A stretch of 64,000 nt of DNA, from assembly GCF_024749285.1 (NCBI RefSeq), contig NZ_CP087196.1, positions 2,666,001 to 2,730,000 of the forward strand, read 5' to 3'. How positions within the stretch are numbered: the first letter of the stretch is position 1; every line of letters begins with the position of its first letter. The position numbers were made by a program, and so were the translations under genes. The stretch is from Pseudomonas sp. B21-015. GTDB lineage: Bacteria; Pseudomonadota; Gammaproteobacteria; Pseudomonadales; Pseudomonadaceae. This document shows positions 1 to 14,504 of this stretch, in pieces. The notes below the pieces were generated by a model, which saw nothing but the letters and a program-made list of their open reading frames with translations, made no database searches and was not told the origin of the DNA.

Positions 1-134
1 AACGCCCCCATGTCTCCATCCCAGCTTCCGGAGATGAGTTGGTATTTCTGACCGGGCTCGATGTGCCCATGGCACTCGTTGCACTTGTGCACCTTGCGAG
101 CGGTGGGCGTGGATTCCGTTTGAAAATCGAACAT
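1..134 (-). CDS. Small phage zinc-binding protein (3' end outside window)
   Basis: Reading the minus strand from an ATG at 134 gives MFDFQTESTPTARKVHKCNE and continues into the window edge. A CxxC pair (KCNECHG) followed by GHIEPGQKYQLISGSWDG looks like a small treble-clef or zinc-ribbon protein common in phage early regions. A good ribosome binding site (GAGGAATCGCT) precedes the ATG. It is the most distal visible gene of the leftward early cluster that also holds the annealing-like gene at 332-1295. The C-terminus is missing, so the rest of the zinc site cannot be seen and no specific function is assigned. Confidence 0.6.
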   Translation of the reverse strand, partial: MFDFQTESTPTARKVHKCNECHGHIEPGQKYQLISGSWDGDMGA

Positions 135-331
135 AGCGATTCCTCGCCCGCCGTTCACCGGCAGGCCGATAGGTATAAATTGTCAGGTCTAATTCGGGTG
201 GTGTATCGTTTCAGCTGTTCACCCTGCTACATGACTCTTTACCGGCCCATGGATGGCGAGGTCATGTGCAGGGAGAACACTCTTTCGCTATACGCCGCTC
301 ACCGGCAGGCTGTGAGTTGTCAATCGGGGGC

Positions 332-1295
332 TTATAACTGGACGAGGTCGGCGGGGACGCTGACTGTTATACCGGTCTGGGCGAATACGACGGCTCGGCA
401 CACAGCGACCTCGCGTGTTTGACCGGGCTGGCGATTGCAAGGATCGCGCGTGGCGTCAGCCAGCCATGGGTAGCTGTGCCCGCGTTCGACCCAGACCCTG
501 TACTTCTCGATCAGGTGGTCGACGTCGAAGTGACGGGCGAAGGGCAGTTGCAGCTGACTGGCGTCGGGCTGCTGGGCGCCCTCGATGCTGTCTATTGTCC
601 AGGCCAGTGCCGGACCAGCCAGTTCCTCGGTGCGGAGGCTCAGCTTGCGTACAGCGGTGTCGTGGATCTTCTTGAGTTCCTGGGCGGACTGGGCGCCGGC
701 CATGGTGTCGATAACCGACCTGATGAATTCCAGGCGCTCTTGCTGCTGGCGCTCGATCTCTTGCTGCTTGTCTTCTGCCTTGGCGATCGCCACTTCATCG
801 CGAACAGTCTCGACATACGCTGCATCGTCGAACATGCCCATGTGGATGTCTGCTGCAAAGCCCAGGGGCTGCAAGCATTTTCCAATGGCGTCAGTAAGCG
901 ACTTTTTCGCTGCTTCCCAGTCGGTAATGATCTTGCCTTGCTGCAGCAACACGAACGGCGTGTGACCGTAGCGCTGAACAGTGCATTTCTGGCCCTCTTT
1001 ACCCAGATACCAAAGCTCAATCTTCACTGTGTGCAGCTTGGCGTTAATGAGCGGGGCGCCGGGCCATTCCTTGGTGGGGGCCTGGAGCGGTGCACCCTCG
1101 TCGAAGCGTTCCTCAAGGACAGTCCAGCCCCAGCCTTCACCGCACGGCCCGAAGATCTCAGTAGCCTTGCGCATCAGGTAGGTTGGCTTGATGGCGGTGC
1201 CTTTGAAGCCGCCCATGCCGGTGAAGTTCTTGGTGGCGCTCGGATCAGTGGTATCGACCAGATCCCAGATCCCAGATCTGCATATTCGTGGACAT
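332..1295 (-). pseudogene. Phage single-strand annealing (Rad52/ERF-superfamily-like) protein with frameshifted start
   Basis: The body (from IWDLVDTTDPSATKNF to the stop at 332) is about 310 residues with KATEIFGPCGEGWGW near the start and KKSLTDAIGKCLQPLGFAAD in the middle. This arrangement resembles phage Rad52/ERF-type annealing proteins, a family match made by eye. The natural start appears to be the ATG at 1295 (MSTNMQIWD), preceded by AAGGAA. That frame meets a 7-bp unit present three times at 1258-1278; with two copies MSTNMQIWDLVDTT would run straight into the body, but with three it hits a stop. An upstream in-frame start exists (about 1318) but lacks a ribosome binding site. Middle residues are also rich in Q/E coiled coil. 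Probably inactive or only weakly expressed. Confidence 0.6.
1258..1278. repeat. Three tandem copies of a 7-bp unit (CCAGATC)
   Basis: Plus-strand CCAGATC occurs three times in a row inside codons 6 to 12 of the annealing-like gene. Because 7 is not a multiple of 3, each gain or loss of a unit shifts the reading frame. Two units would give an intact gene. It is either a fixed slippage mutation or a phase-variable tract. Confidence 0.9.
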
Positions 1296-1337
1296 GAGTG
1301 TTCCTTGCCGCGATGCACGCAGCGTTGAAATGGTGGG

Positions 1338-1454
1338 TTACTGAGTGACGCGATCAGCCAGAGCGCTGAGCAGCATCAGGAAGGTGAAGATGGCGATCGC
1401 CGGGAGTGAGCCGCGCCAAATCAGCAGGCGCCTTGCCCGCTGGCGTCGGGTCAC
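1338..1454 (-). CDS. Tiny single-span membrane protein, phage early cluster
   Basis: A 38-residue frame starts with GTG at 1454 in the GTGA overlap with the stop of the upstream HTH-type gene and ends with TAA at 1338. The sequence has an arginine-rich start (TRRQRARRLL) and one hydrophobic stretch (SLPAIAIFTFLMLLSALA), so it probably sits in the inner membrane with a basic cytoplasmic tail. Translational coupling to the upstream gene and the short gap to the annealing-like gene place it in the leftward early operon. No family is recognised; the function is unknown. Confidence 0.5.
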   Translation of the reverse strand: MTRRQRARRLLIWRGSLPAIAIFTFLMLLSALADRVTQ

Positions 1455-2014
1455 GGGATAACCTCAAGACTGAGGAGTCGTTCGCCCAGGGTGATACGTG
1501 CGGCGACCTTGTCTCGATCAACACCGGTGACGCTGGCAATCTCGCCAAGGGTGCATCCTTGACGCCGCAGTCTGGCGCAGCGCTTGTCAGCGGTACGGTC
1601 ATCAATCTGACCGACAGCAACTTCACCAAGGCCGGCAAATTGAAACGCGGCGTGAAGTACGCCAAGCCTCTGACCAAGACTGAGCGCGACCAGAACTTCA
1701 ACGTAAACGGCCTGGTCGGGGGCAAGGACTACGTGGGCGGGCGATTCCGCGGGAACTGGCAGTTCTCTATCGATACTCCGGCCGATGGCGAACTTGATCA
1801 GGTCGACCCATCGGGCAACGTGTCGGTTGCGGTGCTCATGACCCAGGTGCAGGCCCTGACCATCGGCCAGACCGCGTACATCGTGAACAACCTGCCTTAT
1901 GCGGTGCCGCTTGAGTACGGACATTCGAAGCAGGCGCCCGGCGGAATGGTCCGAATCACTCTGGCCCGCTTTCAACGGATCGTCGACGAAGCCATCAGGA
2001 ACAACCAGGTATGA
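1406..2014 (+). CDS. Phage gp10-like (HK97-type) tail/connector protein, N-terminus uncertain
   Basis: From about 1725 the frame reads YVGGRFRGNWQFSIDTPADG and then QTAYIVNNLPYAVPLEYGHS plus a C-terminal RFQRIVDEAIRNNQ. This is the conserved part of HK97 gp10-like minor tail or head-tail connector proteins. The first 100 residues do not look like the family, and the first 60 lie antisense to the leftward HTH gene, so the true start is unclear and the 5' part may come from a deletion junction. Its stop overlaps the ATG of the tail terminator gene (ATGA at 2011), as expected in a tail operon. Confidence 0.6.
   Translation: MSRAKSAGALPAGVGSRDNLKTEESFAQGDTCGDLVSINTGDAGNLAKGASLTPQSGAALVSGTVINLTDSNFTKAGKLKRGVKYAKPLTKTERDQNFNVNGLVGGKDYVGGRFRGNWQFSIDTPADGELDQVDPSGNVSVAVLMTQVQALTIGQTAYIVNNLPYAVPLEYGHSKQAPGGMVRITLARFQRIVDEAIRNNQV
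1451..1602 (-). pseudogene. Small phage helix-turn-helix protein, start frame broken
   Basis: The frame ADKRCARLRRQGCTLGEIAS followed by VTGVDRDKVAARITLGERLL reads as one helix-turn-helix, of the kind found as small regulators or terminase-like HTHs in Pseudomonas prophages. It ends in a TGA (1451-1453) overlapping the next gene's GTG. No start codon lies upstream in this frame. An ATG at 1602 in the neighbouring frame (MTV...) would join it after a single inserted base, so a one-base deletion near 1595 is likely. The gene abuts oppositely oriented tail DNA, which may be a deletion junction. Confidence 0.4.
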
Positions 2015-2430
2015 GCCATAACCTCATTGCCTCGATCTACGAGGCCAAGCTGATCAATTGGGCGAAGGCGTTGCCAGTACCGCTGAAGGTTGTCGTCGAA
2101 AACGAGGCTTACACGCCGGTGGACGGCGCCACCTACCTGAAGGCGTTCACGCTGCCGGGCGACACCGCAAGCAACACGCTCGGCGGTGACCACAAGCTGT
2201 ACACCGGTGTATTTCAGGTCAGCGTCGTGACGCCCTCGGGTAAGTATCGCGGTGCGGCCGGTGCACTGGCTGACCAGATCGCCGCGTTGTTCCCGCTGTA
2301 CGAACGGAACACGAAGGGCGCACTGACCGTCGTGACCATGACGCCAGTTGACCCTGGCCCAGGCATTCCCGACGACACAACTTTTACTGTACCCGTGTCG
2401 TTCATGTACCGCGCGGACACGGGTCTATAG
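2011..2430 (+). CDS. Phage tail terminator-like protein (DUF4128 type)
   Basis: The 139-residue product (MSHNLIASIYEAKLINWAKA at the start, VPVSFMYRADTGL at the end) has the length and layout of DUF4128 tail terminator or tail completion proteins, which cap the growing tail tube and join it to the head. It follows the gp10-like gene with a 4-bp ATGA overlap and precedes the tail tube gene, the order seen in siphophages of the lambda/HK97 type. Nothing in it looks broken. The assignment is by family resemblance and position. Confidence 0.7.
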   Translation: MSHNLIASIYEAKLINWAKALPVPLKVVVENEAYTPVDGATYLKAFTLPGDTASNTLGGDHKLYTGVFQVSVVTPSGKYRGAAGALADQIAALFPLYERNTKGALTVVTMTPVDPGPGIPDDTTFTVPVSFMYRADTGL

Positions 2431-2479
2431 CTGATTTGTTATCACCCCGAGCTCCAATCCGCTCCATTGCCTATGCGGC

Positions 2480-2485
2480 TATAAT
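2480..2485 (+). promoter_or_regulatory. Consensus -10 element for the DUF2625 moron
   Basis: A perfect TATAAT lies 27 bases ahead of the DUF2625 start codon, in the gap after the tail terminator gene. No convincing -35 box is seen 17 bases upstream. It would allow expression independent of the phage late operon. Confidence 0.45.
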
Positions 2486-2511
2486 CGCTTCCTTTTCCCA
2501 AGGATCGGTAG

Positions 2512-3174
2512 ATGAAAAGTTTGGAAGATTTGATAGATAGCCGCGACCCCGCGCTGCCTCTCATTGAAAAAATGCTGGTAGAAGCCACCCTAAACTATCA
2601 GTTACTACCCCCGTCCACCGAGAACGGCCGAGTTCTTTCTGGCCTTCAGGTTACGACCAGATCGACTTTGGGTGCGATCGCCTACGGGACTGGTGGTCTG
2701 CTTATCGACCATGGCTGGTTACGCGTGCTCGGCTCCGGGCATCCTCAGCTGCCACGAAACCTTGTTGATTGGAACGACGGCCGAGCTGATGCTTATCTGC
2801 TGGTCGCGGACGATGCTGCTGGAGGGTTCTTTTCCATCAACGGCGGCGGTTTGGGCGATGATGTAGGAGCGATGTACTACTGGGCGCCCGACACGCTGCG
2901 CTGGGAGCAGTTGGACATTGGCTATACCGACTTTCTTGGCTGGGCCTTGAGCGATCGGCTCGCAATCTTTTACGACGGCCTGCGCTGGGATGGCTGGCGT
3001 AGCGACTTGCAGGCACTGAAAGCCGATCAGTGTTTTTCATTCTTTCCGTTTCTCTGGACTCAGGAAGGCTCAATCGAGGAAAGCCGCCGCACGATGATCG
3101 ATGTTGGCGAACAGTTCGAGATGAATGTCGAACTAGCTCGCAAACTCGACAATGGATCTGCACAACCAGTCTGA
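2512..3174 (+). CDS. DUF2625 family protein (prophage moron)
   Basis: The 220-residue product carries the DUF2625 signature: LQVTTRSTLGAIAYGTGGLL, then GWLRVLGSGHPQLPR, GGFFSINGGGLG and a YTDFLGWALS / FYDGLRWDGW block. DUF2625 proteins are soluble and of unknown function in enterobacteria and pseudomonads. The start is set by AAGGAT six bases upstream of the ATG. It sits between the tail terminator and tail tube genes, which are normally neighbours, with its own TATAAT and a terminator behind it, which is the hallmark of a moron. A role for the lysogenic host is inferred only from this layout. Confidence 0.85.
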   Translation: MKSLEDLIDSRDPALPLIEKMLVEATLNYQLLPPSTENGRVLSGLQVTTRSTLGAIAYGTGGLLIDHGWLRVLGSGHPQLPRNLVDWNDGRADAYLLVADDAAGGFFSINGGGLGDDVGAMYYWAPDTLRWEQLDIGYTDFLGWALSDRLAIFYDGLRWDGWRSDLQALKADQCFSFFPFLWTQEGSIEESRRTMIDVGEQFEMNVELARKLDNGSAQPV

Positions 3175-3228
3175 AGCCAAGCCGAAGCGCCTGGATTATC
3201 CACTCACCATTTCAATCGATGACCAATG

Positions 3229-3252
3229 AACCCGCCACTGAGCGGGTTTTTT
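3229..3252 (+). terminator. Rho-independent terminator after the DUF2625 gene
   Basis: Short hairpin AACCCGC CACT GAGCGGGTT (arms CCCGC / GCGGG) followed by a T tract. It insulates the DUF2625 gene from the tail tube gene that starts at 3277. Confidence 0.8.
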
Positions 3253-3276
3253 CATTTCTGAAAAGAGGAAAAACCC

Positions 3277-3906
3277 ATGGCCGGCATTCAAATGCCCAAC
3301 GGCGCAACTTTCGAAATTGCTTCCGCCTACGGCACTGCAATCCCATTTACTGCGCTGACTAATGCGAACCCGGCGGTGGCCACGGCCGCCGCGCATGGCT
3401 TGGCCGAGGGCGACATTATTGCGGTGAACTCGGGCTGGACGCGATTGGACGGCCGAGCTGTTCAGGTCGGTGTAATCGCCAGCGGCACCTTTGCGCTGGG
3501 CAGCATCGACACCACCAACGTTCAGCAGTATCCGGCCGGCTCTGGTATTGGTTCTGTGCGCGAAGTCACGTCGTTTACCGAAATCTCGCAGATCACCGAA
3601 CTGGCGTCCAGTGGTGGTGATCAACAGTTCCTGACCTACGGCTTTCTGGCTGACGATGACGATCGCCAGATGCCGACCACCAAGAACCCGATCACGCTGA
3701 ACATAACGGTGGCGGACGATCCTTCCAAGCCTTATGTCGATGTCTGCGAGGCTGCTGACGATGACAAGCAGGTGCGAGTGCTTCGTCTCAACCTGCCAGG
3801 CGGTAGCAGCATCATCTACAACGGCTACGTGTCGATCACATCGACCCCGACCATGTCGCCCATCGCTCAGCTACGCAACGTAGTGGGGCGAATGCGGATT
3901 CGATGA
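3277..3906 (+). pseudogene. Phage tail tube protein, 3'-truncated
   Basis: The first 193 residues read as a siphophage tail tube protein: MAGIQMPNGATFEIASAYGT, a middle ADDDDRQMPTTKNP segment, and SSIIYNGYVSITSTPTM near the end. In the family the last stretch is followed by a roughly 30-40 residue beta-rich end that closes the fold. Here it is replaced after about 3858 by the unrelated tail SPIAQLRNVVGRMRIR and a stop. No tape measure or later tail gene follows. I infer a deletion end point inside this gene, so it is probably non-functional. The ribosome binding site (AAAGAGGAAAAACCC) is normal. Confidence 0.7.
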
Positions 3907-4152
3907 TCCGAATGGCGTCTTCTGGCGCTAGAGACGACCTCGTCATGCCTACTCCCTTTAGAATCGTGGTGTAGCTCTGCTCGGGCAGCAGCCTTCAGCG
4001 TTCGTGTGCTGAACGTAGCTGTTAGTTACCAGATGTGCACTTGATTGCAATTACGGAGTATCCGCACATGCCCCCACCTTTCGAGGAAACTGGCGTGATC
4101 AAGTATTCAGAACACTCTTTCTTTGCCCAATCGGCAACGCTCTGTCCGCACG

Positions 4153-4362
4153 TCAAGAACACTGTATTTGGAGGGCAACGTTCTTCTCGGCGCCGATACA
4201 GGCATTGTATGAAGCTTCAATTTTCAGGGGGAAACCCGGTTTGTTCTGAAAATACATGAAGGCAGTCCGGGCGCCACCAATGACGACCGCGATTCCCGCT
4301 CCCATGAAAGCAAGCATCTCTCTTTTATTTTTGTCGACCAGCCATTTCAAGGATGTGCGCAT
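4153..4362 (-). CDS. Small membrane-anchored protein, possibly a truncated gene
   Basis: A 69-residue frame begins MRTSLKWLVDKNKREMLAFM and has one hydrophobic helix (MLAFMGAGIAVVIGGARTAF) after a basic N-terminus, then NKPGFPLKIEASYNACIGAE and a short end. This looks like the membrane anchor of a larger protein whose C-terminal domain is gone. The ribosome binding site is weak. It stands alone between the broken tail tube gene and the island's left repeat. I do not recognise the family. Confidence 0.35.
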   Translation of the reverse strand: MRTSLKWLVDKNKREMLAFMGAGIAVVIGGARTAFMYFQNKPGFPLKIEASYNACIGAEKNVALQIQCS

Positions 4363-4537
4363 CGGTAGCACTCGGGGTGGCGATCTCAAGGGCGAGTTGA
4401 GTTTTGCTGATCTTGGAAAGCAGGGAATGGGGTAGCCTAAGCGGGCATGGTATTCCTCCGTTGATAGGAAAGAGCGTAGCAGTCAGAGGAGGTGTGATCG
4501 TTTAGCAGAAAGCCGGGGGAGCACGGAAAATCAGGAA

Positions 4538-4571
4538 AGTTTTGTAACGGTTACCAAATAGTTTTGTAACG
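4538..4571. repeat. Two 12-bp direct repeats next to the left att copy
   Basis: AGTTTTGTAACG occurs at 4538-4549 and again at 4560-4571, 22 bp apart (two helical turns), just outside the 104-bp tRNA-derived repeat. The spacing and position suit arm-type binding sites of a tyrosine integrase from the element on the left. This is an inference; the cognate integrase is not in view. Confidence 0.4.
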
Positions 4572-4601
4572 CCTTCAAAAAACGAGGACGCCGCTCAAAC
4601 C

Positions 4602-4705
4602 CCAGAAACGACAAAGCCCTGAATAATCAGGGCTTTGTCGTACATAAGATGGCGGAGGCGATGGGATTCGAACTCATGGACCTGTTACAGTCGACGGTTT
4701 TCAAG
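4602..4705. repeat. Left att copy: 104-bp direct repeat with 3' part of tRNA-Ser
   Basis: Base-for-base identical to 14369-14472. It holds the terminator palindrome (4608-4641) and nucleotides 33-88 of tRNA-Ser including the CCA end (4650-4705, minus strand), then diverges exactly inside the anticodon loop. The 5' tRNA half is missing, so this copy is not a functional tRNA. It marks the left border of the island. Confidence 0.9.
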
Positions 4706-4972
4706 TCCGAAGATTAATCCTTATATTTCAATACTTTAAGTTTTATTCATTTCCGCTAGGCAGTATTCATTGATGCTCTGGAGGCCTCTGAAATCAAGGG
4801 GTGGGAACTTATTTGCGGAAACGAATTTGGCCGGTTATTTGGCGTTCTGGGTGGGCTCATGATCGCCCTAAATTTCATAGCTGCAATCGAGAGACTGCGC
4901 TTGATGGAAAGCGACTTTCATCTGAAGTGAGATTTTTGCAGCCAACCTGGTCAGTCGTGACAGGCAGAAAAC
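4706..4972. other. Gene-poor stretch right of left att
   Basis: The only coding-like part is 4760-4930 on the plus strand, a 56-residue frame (DALEASEIKGWELICGNEFG, then GRLFGVLGGLMIALNFIAAI) that opens after a TAG with no start codon. It looks like the C-terminal end of a lost membrane protein. The rest is AT-rich and shows no clear signal. Confidence 0.4.
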
Positions 4973-5158
4973 GGCCGATTCTGTTGAAAAAGTCGGCCAT
5001 GGTTTCAACGGCAGAAAAGTACGCGCTTGAGATTGAAATCTTTACTTTGAGCAGAGGATTCCGGGCTCAGATTTCGCATAGCTGCGTGCAAAAAAGGCGT
5101 TTTCAGCAGTCAGTATGCGGGCAGTCTGGAAGGACCGACTTTTTCAACACAATCGGCC
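4973..5158 (+). repeat. MITE-like element, copy 1 (186 bp)
   Basis: Bounded by 24-bp terminal inverted repeats (GGCCGATT...AAAAAGTCGG) with one mismatch. It matches the reverse complement of 8555-8740 along its whole length without gaps and only about ten mismatches. It has no coding capacity, as expected for a non-autonomous element. The outer base context (AATCGGCCAATAGCGGACGT) recurs at 10558-10577. Confidence 0.8.
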
Positions 5159-5249
5159 AATAGCGGACGTCCAAATTCAAGGTAAGGCTATGCGTAGATC
5201 ACCGTCCAGATGTGCCCTTGTCCCTACAACGCGCCTTTCTACCATCCCC

Positions 5250-5975
5250 TCAGTAAAGCTCACATCGGGTATGCATAATATTTCTAGAAAACTGAGCTGC
5301 TCGAAGGATTGCTCGCTCATTCACCTCAGAGTCTCTCAGCAAGGAAGGTTCATACGAGTAACGTAGGCCTGCAAGATCGTATAGCTCCCTATAAGTTTCA
5401 GCCCCCATATCCTGATTGCAACGTTCACACAACGTTACTAAATTTCTAAAGCTGGTCTCCCCACCCTGGGAATATGGCCTTACATTCTGCAAAGTTAGCC
5501 CGTCGGTTTCTGGGCAGTTCACACACTGATTTCCATCTCTATCTAAGATTCTTTGTTTGAACTTCCCTCGAAAACTCCTTTTCTGAATAGATGCCGATGC
5601 CAGCTCAATATCTGTAAAAGACCCGTAAGGAGAGATCAGGCACTTTCGCTTTTTTATCCAGTGAGCCATGTGTCGCCTTACAAATTTTTCATCTGCAATC
5701 GCCCACCCCTGAATACAAGTCCAGTCGTAGTAGCTTTTTTCGTTATCAACCACAATGTAACTTCTCCCTAATTCCTCTAGAGCTCCAGAAAACACGTCAC
5801 TGTTTACCAATGAAGGCTTGCGAATCTCAAGACCGCTAGAATCCGGTGCGCTACCTAGTGTTAACGTTGAAAAATAACCATAGCCGCCACAGACTAATTT
5901 CAGGTCAAAGGCATATGCAGAGCTCAAATGTTTTTCCTCACAGTTCTTCAGTGGGCGAGTTGGGATAGCCAACAT
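5250..5975 (-). CDS. HNH-like zinc-finger protein with altered first HNH residue
   Basis: The 241-residue protein has an N-terminal domain I do not recognise (1-130) and an HNH/McrA-type finger at about 140-192: CVNC (151-154), LTLQNVRPYSQGG (161-172), RNLVTLCERC (177-186). The two CxxC pairs are the structural zinc site. In active relatives the strand after the first pair reads DH at the Q163-N164 position; here the histidine is asparagine (codon 5484-5486), and the last HNH residue (after CNQDMG) is also not obvious. It may bind DNA without cutting. The gene overlaps the end of the KAP gene by 38 bp, so the two are co-translated and probably work together. Lower GC than the core suggests transfer. 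Confidence 0.75.
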   Translation of the reverse strand: MLAIPTRPLKNCEEKHLSSAYAFDLKLVCGGYGYFSTLTLGSAPDSSGLEIRKPSLVNSDVFSGALEELGRSYIVVDNEKSYYDWTCIQGWAIADEKFVRRHMAHWIKKRKCLISPYGSFTDIELASASIQKRSFRGKFKQRILDRDGNQCVNCPETDGLTLQNVRPYSQGGETSFRNLVTLCERCNQDMGAETYRELYDLAGLRYSYEPSLLRDSEVNERAILRAAQFSRNIMHTRCELY

Positions 5976-8094
5976 AAGAAGGGTCTAGACCGCGCAATGT
6001 GGCTTGAAGGCGCCTGACTGAGGCTGCAAGCCACAGATCGTCCGGAAGCCCAATTTCTGCCACCAATCTATCAACGACCTCTAAAACTGCGTCGGCATCA
6101 ATCATCTCGTTCATGCTGCTTCGATTACTGATATAGCCTGGACGAACCGTTAGGGCAGCGAAGGTCGCGACTGCGTCCATGTTGTCCAGTTGCGCCGTAA
6201 GGCTGCTCCTAAGTTCCTCATCCCATCGTTTACTATTGGCGATGCAATAAACCGCTTCCATATCAGGAAGTCGCCGCAGTGCGGTTCCATCCATCACAGC
6301 ACAGCGATAACGGGGTAATTCTCGCTCCAACAATTTTGACGTTTCGTTTTTGCTGTAGATTACTTCGCCGCCATTCGGGCGTGAATGCTGGGTAAGATTA
6401 TGGGCGTAAAGATGCTTCCGTAAAAGCCATGGCACTATGAGAAGGTCACCATCCGCTATCAAAGCCTCAACGGTTGCTTTAACACGTATCGTGCCTTCAG
6501 CAGCTGATTTCGCGTGCTGCCATAAGATAGTCCCAGCATCATCCACCAAAAAGCCAAGGGTCTCTTCGCTCCTAATCCAGTCTTGCTGCCGAACAAGCGT
6601 ACGGGCCAAAGCTACCCAGAAGACCCTATCGCCGTCATGAGAAAGCTCTGGAAGTAAGTCGCCAAGTCGATCAAACAGCGCGAGAAACTGCTCGCTTTGT
6701 TGCAAATGCAAAAGGACGATTTCCATCTGATCGAAGTTACCGATGCTCCAGATCTTTTCGATTTCAGCCCTAGCCATCATGCCCGGTGGATTACCTAGGT
6801 AGAGCAAGCGTATGAGGTTTCGACGTTTAGCAATCCTTTTGCCGTTGGACTCTTTGGTTTCGTTGCTGAACCTAGGGAAAAGCACTTGTAGAATCTCGCG
6901 ATAGGCATCTGCGCTAGGGCCAAGTATGTCAGTAACAGAGAGTTCTTTATCTTTGTTATTTTGGCGTGAGACACTTCTTTCCAAGAGTTCATGATCGCTG
7001 GGATCATCAATTACGGCTTCAAGATTATTGATGATAAGATCACGTACCGCAGGAGCTTTTGTGAGAAGCCAGCTGTACCCCAGGACATCGTAGGGACATA
7101 TCTCGCCGCGTATAATTTCTTCCAGCACTGCGAACGCACCGACCAGCCGCTTGATTTCACGTGGGGTACGCGCAGCTCGGATTAGTTGTCGAAGAATTTC
7201 CTCTTGGTATGGCTCTATAGCGTCTGGAAGTTTAACGTTGTTGATGCGTAACGAGTTAGCTAGCAGCGCCTTGACATCATCTGCGAACAGCGGACGTAGC
7301 GAGATCGGAAATTGGATTATCTTTTCCAGGTAGCTTTCTCCAGTTCGCCGCCGCTCCGCCAGATCGCTACCTCTTCCAAGCGCTTGTGCCACGCGATCTG
7401 GATCGTAGGCCACTAGATAGGAGATTCCTCTGATGTCACCTACTGCTTTCACAAGCTGGGCCACTGCGCGAACTTCGTCATCCTCAACTCGGTCCAGTTC
7501 GTCTATTAACACAACGACCGGCACGTTCGCCTTAGCAAGCTTCGCTTCGAGTGCTTTTCGTTCCTGATTCGCCGATAGATCCTTTGGCTTGATTAATGCC
7601 TTAAGGCCCTTGATGGCGCATTTTTCCCAAAAAGTAGTAGCGGCGCCGCCACTGCCAAAAGCGTCAATGACGGCAGCAACCGTAGTACCGGTAAACTCAA
7701 TGGATGCCTTATACCGCTCGAGTTGTAGCTGTACCTCTCTTGCTTTCTCGCTGGTACTACGGCCGAGCGCTTCACGTAGGCTACTGAAGTATGCCTGCAC
7801 CAACTCGTCGCGCCCTTTGAAAAGCCAAGGGTTCAAAGTCGCCACTACAACACTATCCAGCTGCTTCAGTTCTGCACTCAGCAAGTTAAGGATACTCGAT
7901 TTTCCGAGCCCCCATTCACCGGTCAGGCCTATGACAAAACCTGTTGCACAGCGGGTGATTTCTCCCTCAGTGCTTCGTTCGGTGTGAACTAGCGCTTTGA
8001 TAAGGCTGGCGATGAACGGGCCACGATCCAATGCATCAGCTTCAGCTTTTTCGATGGCCCGATCTTGGCGCGCCAAGTGATCATTGGTTTCCAT
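5938..8094 (-). CDS. KAP family P-loop NTPase
   Basis: The 718-residue product has a Walker A (GEWGLGKSS, K65), the KAP-type NPW motif (ATLNPWLFKG, about 87-95), a Walker B (VVVLIDELDR, D198-E199) and an arginine-containing sensor region (RTPREIKRLVGAF, about 310). KAP NTPases are STAND/AAA-like switches frequent in phage defence systems. There is no clear transmembrane insert between Walker A and B, unlike many KAP proteins, so it is likely cytosolic. Residues 380-718 are helical and not recognised; they may sense a trigger. It is the first gene of a two-gene leftward operon with the HNH-like protein, inside inverted MITE-like repeats. Confidence 0.88.
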   Translation of the reverse strand: METNDHLARQDRAIEKAEADALDRGPFIASLIKALVHTERSTEGEITRCATGFVIGLTGEWGLGKSSILNLLSAELKQLDSVVVATLNPWLFKGRDELVQAYFSSLREALGRSTSEKAREVQLQLERYKASIEFTGTTVAAVIDAFGSGGAATTFWEKCAIKGLKALIKPKDLSANQERKALEAKLAKANVPVVVLIDELDRVEDDEVRAVAQLVKAVGDIRGISYLVAYDPDRVAQALGRGSDLAERRRTGESYLEKIIQFPISLRPLFADDVKALLANSLRINNVKLPDAIEPYQEEILRQLIRAARTPREIKRLVGAFAVLEEIIRGEICPYDVLGYSWLLTKAPAVRDLIINNLEAVIDDPSDHELLERSVSRQNNKDKELSVTDILGPSADAYREILQVLFPRFSNETKESNGKRIAKRRNLIRLLYLGNPPGMMARAEIEKIWSIGNFDQMEIVLLHLQQSEQFLALFDRLGDLLPELSHDGDRVFWVALARTLVRQQDWIRSEETLGFLVDDAGTILWQHAKSAAEGTIRVKATVEALIADGDLLIVPWLLRKHLYAHNLTQHSRPNGGEVIYSKNETSKLLERELPRYRCAVMDGTALRRLPDMEAVYCIANSKRWDEELRSSLTAQLDNMDAVATFAALTVRPGYISNRSSMNEMIDADAVLEVVDRLVAEIGLPDDLWLAASVRRLQATLRGLDPSYVGYPNSPTEEL

Positions 8095-8250
8095 AATTTA
8101 AGTAGTCGCTTTCCATATGTGAGAAACAATCGCTTTTGGAATGAACTGTTGAATCATCTTGCGCAGAGCCTTTTCTTCCTATGTATACCGGCAGCTTAGT
8201 CGGTGAAATCAAACAATTGCTCATACGAAAATGAGCATGTACTACGCTAA

Positions 8251-8288
8251 TAAAAAGCCCGCCGACACGCTAACGATGACGGAGGGCT
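8251..8288 (-). terminator. Terminator after the 44-residue gene
   Basis: Minus strand AGCCCTCCG ... CGGCGGGCT followed by TTTTT, read after the stop at 8301. The stem is imperfect and the loop about 20 nt, but the U tract is clear. Confidence 0.6.
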
Positions 8289-8300
8289 GTCAGCCTGTAG

Positions 8301-8435
8301 TTAGTCTCCAGGCTTGTGCTTATGGATAGGCAAAGTAGGGTGTTTTTTATCGTTGGGTGGATTCACATGCCGTCTGCGGTCTTCCTTGCCATCATCGCGC
8401 TTTGGCTTCGGGCCTGGCTTGATATCAGTAAACAT
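8301..8435 (-). CDS. Small basic 44-residue protein
   Basis: MFTDIKPGPKPKRDDGKEDR followed by RRHVNPPNDKKHPTLPIHKH and a short end: highly charged, proline-rich, no hydrophobic segment, probably disordered. The ATG at 8435 is chosen because CAGGAG lies 6 bases upstream; a longer frame from 8492 has no ribosome binding site. A terminator follows. The clean gene signals argue for a real gene, but no family or function is recognised. Confidence 0.55.
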   Translation of the reverse strand: MFTDIKPGPKPKRDDGKEDRRRHVNPPNDKKHPTLPIHKHKPGD

Positions 8436-8554
8436 ACGTACTCCTGTAAAGAACGGTAGATGAGAAGCTTTGAAAACGTAGCACATAGCCATTCAACTAG
8501 CTCATTTCGCTTAAACAACCGGCGCCGCTCAAGCCAGCTTGACTGACCGCTTCT

Positions 8555-8740
8555 GGCCGATTCTGTTGAAAAAGTCGGTTCTTCCAGACTGCCCACGCAC
8601 TGACTGCTAAAAATGCCTTTTTTGCGCGCAGCTACGCGAAATCCGAGCCCGGAATCCTCTGCTCAAAGTAAAGATTTCAATCTCAAGCGCGTACTTTTCT
8701 GCCGTGGAAACCATGGCCGACTTTTTCAACAGAATCGGCC
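8555..8740 (-). repeat. MITE-like element, copy 2 (inverted, 186 bp)
   Basis: Inverted copy of 4973-5158 with perfect 24-bp terminal inverted repeats. With copy 1 it brackets the KAP/HNH-like operon and the 44-residue gene. No transposase is encoded. Confidence 0.8.
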
Positions 8741-8878
8741 GTTAACTGCCTTTAGTGAAGTACAGCTTTGGGTCGAAAGTAGCCGGTGACAGCTTCATCA
8801 ATTGACCATACTCCAATCAACCTATTGCAGGTTCCAATTGGGGGCACTGTCGCTGCTTTCTCGAAAGGAATCGACACC

Positions 8879-9669: not shown

Positions 9670-9841
9670 CAGACCGTTCGGCGGATCGGTCGATCCGAGC
9701 GAGAAATGGGAGCTCAGCATCCTTGAATCGGCGCTTCATGTGCAGGTGGGGTTTATGGAGCGCTTACAATTCGGTTAGTCAGTCCGGTTCACCTCACTGG
9801 CAGCTATTGGCGACAGTTTAGTTGCGACCATCGCAGAGGAA

Positions 9842-10462
9842 TTACACCTCCGTCTGTTCAGCCATTTCTAGGGCATCATCGACCTCGATACCCAGGTATC
9901 TGACAGTGCTTTCAAGCTTCGTATGACCAAGCAGGAGTTGCACAGCTCTCAGGTTCTTCGTCCTGCGATAGATCAGCGATGACTTGGTTCGCCGGAGCGT
10001 GTGAGTACCGTACATGGTTGGGTCAAGACCAATGGTTGTCACCCACGCTTTGACTATTCGAGCGTATTGCCTGGTGGATAGATGGGCTGAGCCGTGCAAC
10101 CGGGTCGGAAACAAGAAGTCCTCGCTGCGGAGGCGGGCCTGATGCATCCAAGCCTCCTGAACTGTTCGGGTTTGCTCTGTGATTTCAAGTTGCACTGGGT
10201 GCTGGGTTTTCTGCTGCATCACGATGGCCCGTGACGACACATGTTCCCCATGGGCTATGTCTCGGACTCGCAGCTTGGTGAAGTCACAGGCACGCAGCTT
10301 GCTGTCGATGGCCAAGTTGAAGAGAGCCAGATCCCGTGTTTTCTCCGCGAGCTGGAGTCTTACCCGAATGGCCCAGATATCTCTGACTCGGAGCGGGGCT
10401 TTCTGTCCGACTAGCTTTCCCTTGTTCCAAGGCTGATGACTATATGTAGCAATGATCTTCAT
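9842..10462 (-). CDS. Short tyrosine recombinase/integrase
   Basis: The 206-residue product is a minimal tyrosine recombinase lacking the long N-terminal arm-binding domain. All catalytic residues are visible: R57 (DSKLRACDF), K85 (MQQKTQH), H154 and R157 (GTHTLRRTK), H180 (LLLGHTK) and the nucleophile Y189 (STVRYLGI). It catalyses strand exchange at specific sites. The full set and normal length for this short family suggest it is active. It lies mid-island with no att site beside it, so it need not be the enzyme that placed the island at the tRNA. Its ribosome binding site is buried in a hairpin (see 10468-10489). Confidence 0.9.
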   Translation of the reverse strand: MKIIATYSHQPWNKGKLVGQKAPLRVRDIWAIRVRLQLAEKTRDLALFNLAIDSKLRACDFTKLRVRDIAHGEHVSSRAIVMQQKTQHPVQLEITEQTRTVQEAWMHQARLRSEDFLFPTRLHGSAHLSTRQYARIVKAWVTTIGLDPTMYGTHTLRRTKSSLIYRRTKNLRAVQLLLGHTKLESTVRYLGIEVDDALEMAEQTEV

Positions 10463-10467
10463 GGTTT

Positions 10468-10489
10468 GTCCTCCACGTTGAGGGAGGAC
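10468..10489 (-). promoter_or_regulatory. Hairpin sequestering the integrase ribosome binding site
   Basis: On the minus strand GTCCTCC and GGAGGAC form a 7-bp perfect stem with an 8-nt loop; the second arm holds the GGAGG Shine-Dalgarno, 5 bases before the ATG. Such a fold would limit translation of the recombinase. Confidence 0.6.
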
Positions 10490-10557
10490 AAGGGTGGATC
10501 AGTCACGGTGCGTGGTGGTCGCTAACCGACCCATAGCTGCCGGTGGCAGCAGGCATA

Positions 10558-13991: not shown

Positions 13992-14368
13992 ATGTGCTAA
14001 TGTGGTAGCAGGCAGCGGCGAACCTCGTTAACAGCGCATCCCAAAGCTTTTGGACGGAAGTGGACCGGCATGACAGCTATCGCCAACCTTTGCCGCGTGG
14101 TTCGAACAGGTCTGCATAGCCCCTTGAGTAGTGTCTGTACGAGATCTGCAATCCATACCCAGTGTCCGCTTCTGGCCCGTTAGCTGCCGCTCCTGATTCA
14201 CAGCTGTTGGCCGGAAGCTGATTATCGATCCTGACCGAATACCCATTTTGCGTGCGAGTCGAGTTTCTTGATCCAGGTAGGAGAGGTCGGTACGGAACGG
14301 GAGGGTTGCGGAAATAGCTCAAAAGATGCGGAAACGATATAGAAATGGTGCAACAGAAATCGCACACT
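13992..14368. other. Non-coding right end of the island
   Basis: About 380 bp with no convincing gene on either strand. A stretch near 14160-14225 (TCCGCTTCTGGCC ... TTGGCCGGAAGC) resembles the palindromic context around the MITE-like copies. Possibly the second attachment arm region. Confidence 0.4.
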
Positions 14369-14472
14369 CCAGAAACGACAAAGCCCTGAATAATCAGGGC
14401 TTTGTCGTACATAAGATGGCGGAGGCGATGGGATTCGAACTCATGGACCTGTTACAGTCGACGGTTTTCAAG
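14369..14472. repeat. Right att copy: 104-bp direct repeat
   Basis: Identical to 4602-4705. It includes the tRNA terminator palindrome and tRNA-Ser nucleotides 33-88, and here continues into the 5' half of the tRNA. Confidence 0.9.
14375..14408 (-). terminator. Terminator of tRNA-Ser
   Basis: Perfect 15-bp inverted repeat (ACGACAAAGCCCTGA with a 4-nt loop) directly downstream of the tRNA on the minus strand. An identical copy at 4608-4641 belongs to the left att repeat. Confidence 0.75.
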
Positions 14473-14504
14473 ACCGTTGCCTTAAACCACTCGGCCACAC
14501 CTCC
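14417..14504 (-). tRNA. tRNA-Ser(UGA)
   Basis: An 88-nt sequence on the minus strand: acceptor GGAGGTG pairs with the 3' end before an encoded CCA, T-loop GTTCGAATC, and anticodon loop CTTGAAA giving anticodon TGA. The long variable arm is typical of serine tRNAs. It serves as the integration site of the island. Confidence 0.95.

What the first reader, a model, noticed from the sequence alone, without database searches (positions are those of the whole stretch)
5250..8094. Two-gene KAP NTPase plus HNH-like cassette: candidate undescribed defence system
The sequence shows a KAP-type NTPase (Walker A K65, Walker B D198-E199, NPW motif) overlapping by 38 bp a small zinc-finger/HNH-like protein, alone on their transcript. 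KAP NTPases are known in several anti-phage systems (for example in Qat and as Tmn), but I know no described system made of just this pair. It sits in a tRNA island, is more AT-rich than its surroundings and is flanked by inverted mobile repeats. A defence role is inference.
Basis: partly seen in the sequence, partly recalled or inferred. Interest (0 to 1): 0.8.

Follow-up and report, generated by a model that had tools for sequence, protein, structure and literature searches.

The report
Two solo defence-like genes, chance neighbours
Two defence-type genes, an ATP-driven switch protein and a small DNA-cutting-type protein, sit side by side in a bacterial genomic island, but in the other genomes examined each was found without the other, so they look like two separate mobile genes rather than one new two-gene immune system.

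Summary
Both genes are real: a 718-aa KAP NTPase (5938-8094, minus) and an HNH-type protein (5250-5927, minus), in a 9.8-kb segment bounded by a 114-bp repeat of tRNA-Ser DNA and enclosed by inverted 205-nt repeats. Two details change. The 38-bp overlap is an ORF-calling artefact: relatives place the HNH start at a TTG, 10 nt after the KAP stop. And the HNH catalytic-position His is Asn here; 52 of 52 aligned relatives have His.

Of 398 genomes of the genus, 9 have a full-length KAP orthologue and 3 the HNH family; only this genome has both. 0 of 12 other KAP loci hold the HNH and 0 of 9 other HNH loci hold this KAP. One further pair, about 96% identical, is inferred from database proteins. 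KAP loci include prophages; HNH loci include two attC-like cassette arrays and a Gabija neighbour. Best reading: two independent single-gene units, probably anti-phage, recently juxtaposed. Defence is inferred, not shown.

The parts
5938..8094 (-). KAP-family P-loop NTPase, 718 aa: AAA-type N-terminal part, all-helical C-terminal part
   Evidence: PF07693 205.9 bits; Walker A and B conserved in 57 of 57 relatives; model pLDDT 83; dN/dS 0.17
5250..5927 (-). HNH-family protein, 225 aa, TTG start; unknown N-terminal domain plus zinc-type HNH domain whose catalytic-position His is Asn in this copy
   Evidence: PF14279 and PF01844 above cut-off; start from relatives and DNA; His in 52 of 52 aligned relatives
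5928..5937 (-). 10-nt gap between the KAP stop and the HNH TTG start
   Evidence: sequence
5916..5968 (.). Approximate junction of the two modules: DNA similarity of the HNH module to P. baltica ends at 5915 and that of the KAP module to prophage locus L075 ends at 5969
4962..5166 (+). Left MITE-like repeat, with 24-nt terminal inverted repeats
   Evidence: inverted to the right copy, 93%; 6 near-full copies in the genome
8547..8751 (-). Right MITE-like repeat, inverted to the left one
4596..4709 (+). 114-bp direct repeat with the 3' part of tRNA-Ser: inner att-like site
   Evidence: 97% to 14363-14476; third copy at G000:C1:2664199
14363..14476 (+). 114-bp direct repeat overlapping the intact tRNA-Ser gene: outer att-like site
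14417..14504 (-). tRNA-Ser (anticodon tga), integration target
   Evidence: ARAGORN

Best explanation
The locus is two independent single-gene units that happen to abut inside a tRNA-Ser island, between inverted MITE-like repeats. Unit 1 is a stand-alone, probably soluble KAP-family NTPase. Inferred mechanism: ATP-dependent assembly through the AAA-type domain, a phage-derived trigger sensed by the helical C-terminal region, then arrest or death of the infected cell, by analogy with the single-gene KAP proteins PifA and Tmn. Unit 2 is a stand-alone HNH family with an N-terminal domain of unknown kind, most likely acting alone on invading DNA in a McrA-like way; this copy is probably catalytically dead because its catalytic-position His is Asn. 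Shown: domains, motifs, selection, occurrence of each without the other, mobile context, the Asn. Inferred: defence function, trigger, effect, loss of nuclease activity.
For: Of 398 genus genomes, 9 have the KAP orthologue and 3 the HNH family, 1 has both. 0 of 12 other KAP loci hold the HNH, 0 of 9 other HNH loci hold this KAP. DNA similarity is modular: window 5969-8155 to prophage locus L075 (79.5%), window 5167-5915 to P. baltica L031 (84%). HNH between attC-like repeats in L033 and L035, beside GajA and GajB in L034. KAP in viral contigs L075-L078, beside an integrase in L037, L076 and L077. Catalytic His is Asn in the window, His in 52 of 52.
Against: The pair probably exists in a second, about 96% identical strain: P0121 carries 15 of 16 residues of the window's out-of-frame extension, and its changes agree with the C-terminus of P0001 (inference, no DNA read). 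The gap of 10 nt and the motif next to the KAP stop look like an operon. Contexts of the 78-80% KAP relatives P0002, P0003, P0004 and P0006 and of the 83-91% HNH relatives P0122, P0124 and P0127 were not read. No phenotype is known, and PMC8594841 (passages) raises the possibility that even PifA did not evolve as an immunity system.
Confidence: 0.6

Rival explanations
1. A genuine new two-gene defence system, KAP sensor or motor with an HNH partner, recently assembled and so far confined to one Pseudomonas lineage; in this copy the HNH would act as a DNA-binding rather than a cutting subunit.
For: 10-nt spacing; both frames open and selected; a second, about 96% identical pair inferred from P0001 and P0121, whose HNH keeps its His.
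Against: The families do not travel together: 1 of 398 genus genomes has both, and 0 of 12 and 0 of 9 other loci show the partner. The HNH is alone between attC-like repeats and KAP is alone in L075.
Confidence: 0.17
2. Neither gene is for anti-phage defence: KAP is a prophage or island maintenance factor and the HNH a selfish or recombination nuclease.
For: KAP loci L075-L078 and HNH loci L080 and L081 are viral contigs, and some loci have integrases nearby. HNH domains also occur in homing nucleases (recalled).
Against: Several neighbours match GajA, GajB, PtuA, PtuB, ThsB and SduA models (10 proteins picked, 7 matched), and the HNH between attC-like repeats fits cassette cargo better than a homing nuclease.
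Confidence: 0.23

Closest known systems
PifA of the F plasmid (single-gene KAP phage exclusion)
   Same: KAP P-loop domain, about 720-740 aa, no clear transmembrane segment by hydropathy
   Different: 22% identity, 81 bits; PADLOC PifA model 161 bits against 963 for F PifA, while seven other Pseudomonas KAPs score 115-321; in F, pifC lies directly upstream of the PifA gene, which is not so here
Tmn (single-gene KAP with two transmembrane segments; PMC11846954, passages)
   Same: KAP-family NTPase, described as a defence system
   Different: no transmembrane candidate in the P-loop region here (best 19-residue window there 1.08; best in the whole protein 1.46)
QatA of the Qat system
   Same: KAP-type ATPase region aligns
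   Different: 48.5 bits against NCBIfam's cut-off of 600
RdrA of RADAR
Stand-alone HNH restriction nucleases such as EcoKMcrA
   Different: modest Z; N-terminal 113 residues barely tested by the search; catalytic-position His is Asn in the window
Septu (PtuA with PtuB)
   Same: layout of an ATPase gene followed by an HNH gene
   Different: KAP scores 10.7 bits on the one PtuA model listed; the HNH matches no PtuB model at E 0.1

Membership tests
KAP P-loop NTPase family (PF07693) | Profile score above Pfam's cut-off | tested here: met
   205.9 bits against 20
KAP P-loop NTPase family (PF07693) | Walker A lysine and Walker B acidic pair | tested here: met
   K65, D198 and E199 in 57 of 57 aligned relatives
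PifA | Full-length similarity to F-plasmid PifA beyond that of other KAPs | tested here: not met
   22% identity; 161 bits on the PADLOC model against 963 for PifA and 115-321 for seven other KAPs
QatA | NCBIfam equivalog cut-off of 600 bits | tested here: not met
   48.5 bits
Tmn | Two transmembrane segments | tested here: not met
   Crude hydropathy scan: best 19-residue window 1.46, at residue 540; best in the P-loop region 1.08. Tmn itself was not run as a control
RADAR RdrA | RdrA fold over the whole protein | tested here: inconclusive
Septu PtuA and PtuB | Matches to PtuA and PtuB models | tested here: not met
   10.7 bits on one PtuA model; no PtuB match to the HNH at E 0.1
HNH nuclease family | HNH profile above cut-off and zinc-type cysteines | tested here: met
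   PF14279 36 bits (27.5), PF01844 30.3 bits (21.4); four Cys kept, one relative gapped at the fourth
HNH nuclease family | Catalytic-position histidine | tested here: not met
   Asn at 148 of 225; His in 52 of 52 aligned relatives. That this position is the general base is recalled
A conserved KAP-HNH two-gene system | Recurrent adjacency in unrelated genomes | tested here: not met
   1 of 398 genus genomes has both; 0 of 12 and 0 of 9 other loci; one inferred 96% pair
Anti-phage defence gene | Protection against phage | not testable with these tools
   Context only

The most novel reading that the evidence does not exclude
The window holds not one but two undescribed single-gene anti-phage systems: a subfamily of soluble, prophage- and island-borne KAP NTPases of about 720 aa that senses phage with its helical C-terminal region, and a 225-aa HNH family with a new N-terminal targeting domain that spreads as an integron-type cassette, in prophages and beside Gabija.
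Probability: 0.4. Interest if true: 0.5.

Novelty: new member of a known kind. Interest (0 to 1): 0.3.

Why it matters
It removes a tempting false positive: adjacency, a short gap and an island setting looked like an operon, yet in the other loci read each gene occurs without the other. It also leaves two testable leads: a solo KAP NTPase subfamily carried by Pseudomonas prophages and islands, and a solo HNH family that appears to move as a cassette. If either protects alone, defence catalogues would gain a one-gene family, and KAP proteins, whose triggers and effects are poorly known (for Tmn so stated in PMC11846954, passages), would gain another example without evident transmembrane segments.

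Tried and rejected
Two-gene KAP-HNH system: rejected as the main reading because the families do not travel together. Overlapping genes: rejected. PifA, QatA, Septu and Tmn membership: one defining feature each tested and not met. A constant partner of another kind downstream of KAP: not seen in 12 loci.

Searches that gave little. Plasmid records: 4 partial HNH hits; 25 records with KAP hits, 1 of them covering at least 80% of the query, at 32% identity. Phage records: no KAP match; 24 records with HNH matches, none covering 80%. E. coli genomes: no DNA match for the window KAP gene or for the Serratia HNH gene of L032. PDB by sequence: no KAP match at 1e-3; 15 HNH matches at 0.1, lying within residues 120-192. 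Phylum sample of 398 genomes: HNH at E 1e-30 and KAP at E 1e-80 only in the window's genome. The 293-genome relatives search at E 1e-50 gave 3 KAP genomes, all seen before. The 44-aa ORF at 8301-8435 found no relative in the loci held at E 1 other than its own copy and two matches at E 0.7. The fold rows listed for the HNH model span almost only residues 101-225, so nothing is claimed about the fold of the N-terminal domain.

Literature: eight searches, seen as listings (capped at 5 to 20 or so rows), showed no title or abstract start describing a KAP plus HNH pair as a system. Passages only were read of PMC11846954, PMC8594841, PMC11990801 and PMC10853773. Absence from print is not claimed beyond this.

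Rows dropped before counts; 56 of 398 genomes have some KAP match; the 47 others than the 9 have best matches of 38% identity or less and are counted as distant KAPs; 27 of 398 have some HNH match; the 24 others than the 3 have E above 1e-13 and short matches. Two of the 9 KAP genomes (G140, G234) are among those 24, with the weak HNH match on another contig than the KAP gene. The 3 includes G034, whose HNH gene lies in two frames. L079 (36 bits) and L082 (17.5 bits) were left out. L036 is a relic of 44 residues, and the HNH frame of L080 ends early. Flanks are short on one side in several loci (for example L036, L076, L077, L078), so absence there is weaker.

Full report
WHAT IS THERE. The window is G000:C1:2666001-2730000 of a 6.59-Mb single-contig genome; the closest named relatives of its two proteins are mostly from Pseudomonas. 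On the minus strand, 5938-8094 encodes a 718-aa KAP-family NTPase (PF07693, 205.9 bits, cut-off 20). Downstream, 5250-5975 holds an ORF with HNH domains (PF14279 36 bits, PF01844 30.3 bits, both above cut-off). Both genes show purifying selection: dN/dS 0.17 for KAP against L075 over 712 codons, 0.12 for HNH against L031 over 223 codons.

TWO CORRECTIONS. First, the overlap. Most HNH relatives are 222-226 aa and align from residue 17 to 20 of the called ORF. There the DNA reads GAGGAAAAACATTTG: a ribosome-binding motif and a TTG start at 5927. The KAP stop is at 5938-5940, so the genes are 10 nt apart and do not overlap. Second, the catalytic-position histidine (residue 148 of 225) is Asn in the window but His in 52 of 52 aligned relatives, including P0121 at 96% identity. 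That this His is the general base is recalled knowledge of HNH nucleases; on that basis this copy is probably not an active nuclease. The four zinc-type cysteines are kept.

THE SETTING. Direct repeats of 114 bp with the 3' part of tRNA-Ser lie at 4596-4709 and 14363-14476 (97%), and a third copy (94%) lies at G000:C1:2664199, outside the window. So two segments lie in tandem at one tRNA-Ser: a 6.4-kb one with a phage integrase and a tail-tube gene, and the 9.8-kb one with the KAP and HNH genes. Within the latter, inverted 205-nt repeats (4962-5166 and 8547-8751, 93%) enclose the two genes. The genome has six near-full copies of this repeat, 78-100% identical to the left one. Two stretches of about 1.6 kb share its ends and carry a similar transposase (L091, L092); the L091 protein matches DDE transposase families (IS1182-like by recall). 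GC is 48.8% for 5167-8546 against 59.9% for the window outside the island.

DO THE GENES BELONG TOGETHER? Of 398 genomes of the genus, full-length KAP orthologues (48% identity or more) were found in 9 and the HNH family in 3, one of them in two frames. Only the window's genome has both. In 398 genomes drawn across the phylum each family was found, at strict thresholds, only in the window's genome. I then read neighbourhoods with profiles of both families. Twelve KAP loci other than the window (L037-L044 from the genus, L075-L078 from viral contigs) gave no HNH, and nine HNH loci other than the window (L031 which equals L073, L032-L036, L074, L080, L081) gave no KAP of this family. Some flanks are short, and L036 is a relic. 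DNA comparison shows the modules apart: window 5969-8155 matches prophage locus L075 at 79.5% and stops before the HNH, while window 5167-5915 matches P. baltica at 84% and stops at the HNH start. P. baltica also has DNA similar to part of the repeat just upstream of its HNH gene (73-77%). Downstream of KAP, 7 of 12 loci have no same-strand ORF of 60 aa or more within 250 nt and the other 5 have differing ones.

EVIDENCE THE OTHER WAY. The pair is probably not unique to this genome. Database protein P0121 (96% HNH) carries an N-terminal extension that matches the window's in 15 of 16 residues; in the window this extension is another reading frame of the KAP 3' end. Its one difference, and one in the C-terminus of P0001 (96% KAP), can be produced by the same DNA without conflict (my inference, as no DNA of that strain was read). 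If so, the junction has survived some divergence with both genes open. The contexts of four other KAP relatives at 78-80% (P0002, P0003, P0004, P0006) could not be read. A recent lineage-specific operon is therefore not excluded.

WHERE EACH GENE LIVES ALONE. KAP: in a viral contig among phage-like genes (L075), beside an integrase (L076, L077, L037), and near genes that match PADLOC models for ThsB (L039) and for PtuA and PtuB (L041). HNH: beside genes matching GajA and GajB (L034), in viral contigs (L080, L081), and between attC-like repeats in L033 (Aquabacterium) and L035 (Vibrio), the former also holding an SduA match. Reading these arrays as integrons rests on the repeats; I did not look for an integron integrase. 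One search scanned 10 neighbour proteins chosen because they looked promising: 7 matched a PADLOC model at 1e-5 and 3 did not, so it is not a rate of defence association.

HOW IT MOST LIKELY WORKS. This is inference throughout. Single-gene KAP proteins PifA and Tmn are known phage-exclusion factors. PMC8594841 (passages) reports PifA acting on T7 and a close relative, cites the earlier proposal that it triggers host death by membrane depolarization, and also raises the possibility that PifA did not evolve for immunity. PMC11846954 says that the Tmn mechanism is unexplored. By analogy the window KAP would sense a phage product with its helical C-terminal region, assemble with ATP and stop the infected cell. 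The HNH family would cut invading DNA on its own, with its N-terminal domain choosing the target; the window copy is probably dead. I put 0.6 on two independent, defence-related units, 0.17 on a true pair and 0.23 on no defence role.

VERDICT. The two-gene system is not supported. Novelty: new members of known kinds (KAP NTPases, solo HNH proteins). Interest is modest, 0.3, with two solo families worth a plaque assay.

Noticed in passing
G000:C1:2664199-2670709 (window 1-4709 and upstream): A second, 6.4-kb segment lies in tandem at the same tRNA-Ser, bounded by the same repeat, with a phage integrase (L094:3437-4486) and a tail-tube gene (window 3277-3906).
   Followed up: partly
L033:9882-10814 and L035:8614-11225: The HNH gene lies between attC-like repeats in Aquabacterium and Vibrio contigs, as a cassette would; the Aquabacterium array also has an SduA match.
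   Followed up: partly
G000:C1:6178868-6184039: Two more copies of the MITE-like repeat lie about 5 kb apart in the same orientation, around other genes, including PAAR-type and toxin-like cargo by my reading of the ORFs.
   Followed up: no
L091:260-1895 and L092:200-1833: About 1.6-kb insertion sequences whose ends match those of the MITE-like repeat and which carry a DDE transposase: likely source of movement for the repeat.
   Followed up: partly
window 2512-3174 (+): A DUF2625 gene (267 bits) lies among phage tail genes of the left segment, possible cargo.
   Followed up: no
window 9842-10462 (-): A short 206-aa tyrosine recombinase in the island; window 9826-10542 is 85.8% identical to two Pseudomonas plasmids.
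   Followed up: no
window 8301-8435 (-): A possible 44-aa charged small protein between KAP and the right repeat; no credible relative in the loci held.
   Followed up: partly
L041:1995-5166: The Septu-like ATPase beside a KAP gene matches PtuB models in its first 200 or so residues and PtuA models over its whole length, and a separate PtuB-like gene follows.
   Followed up: no
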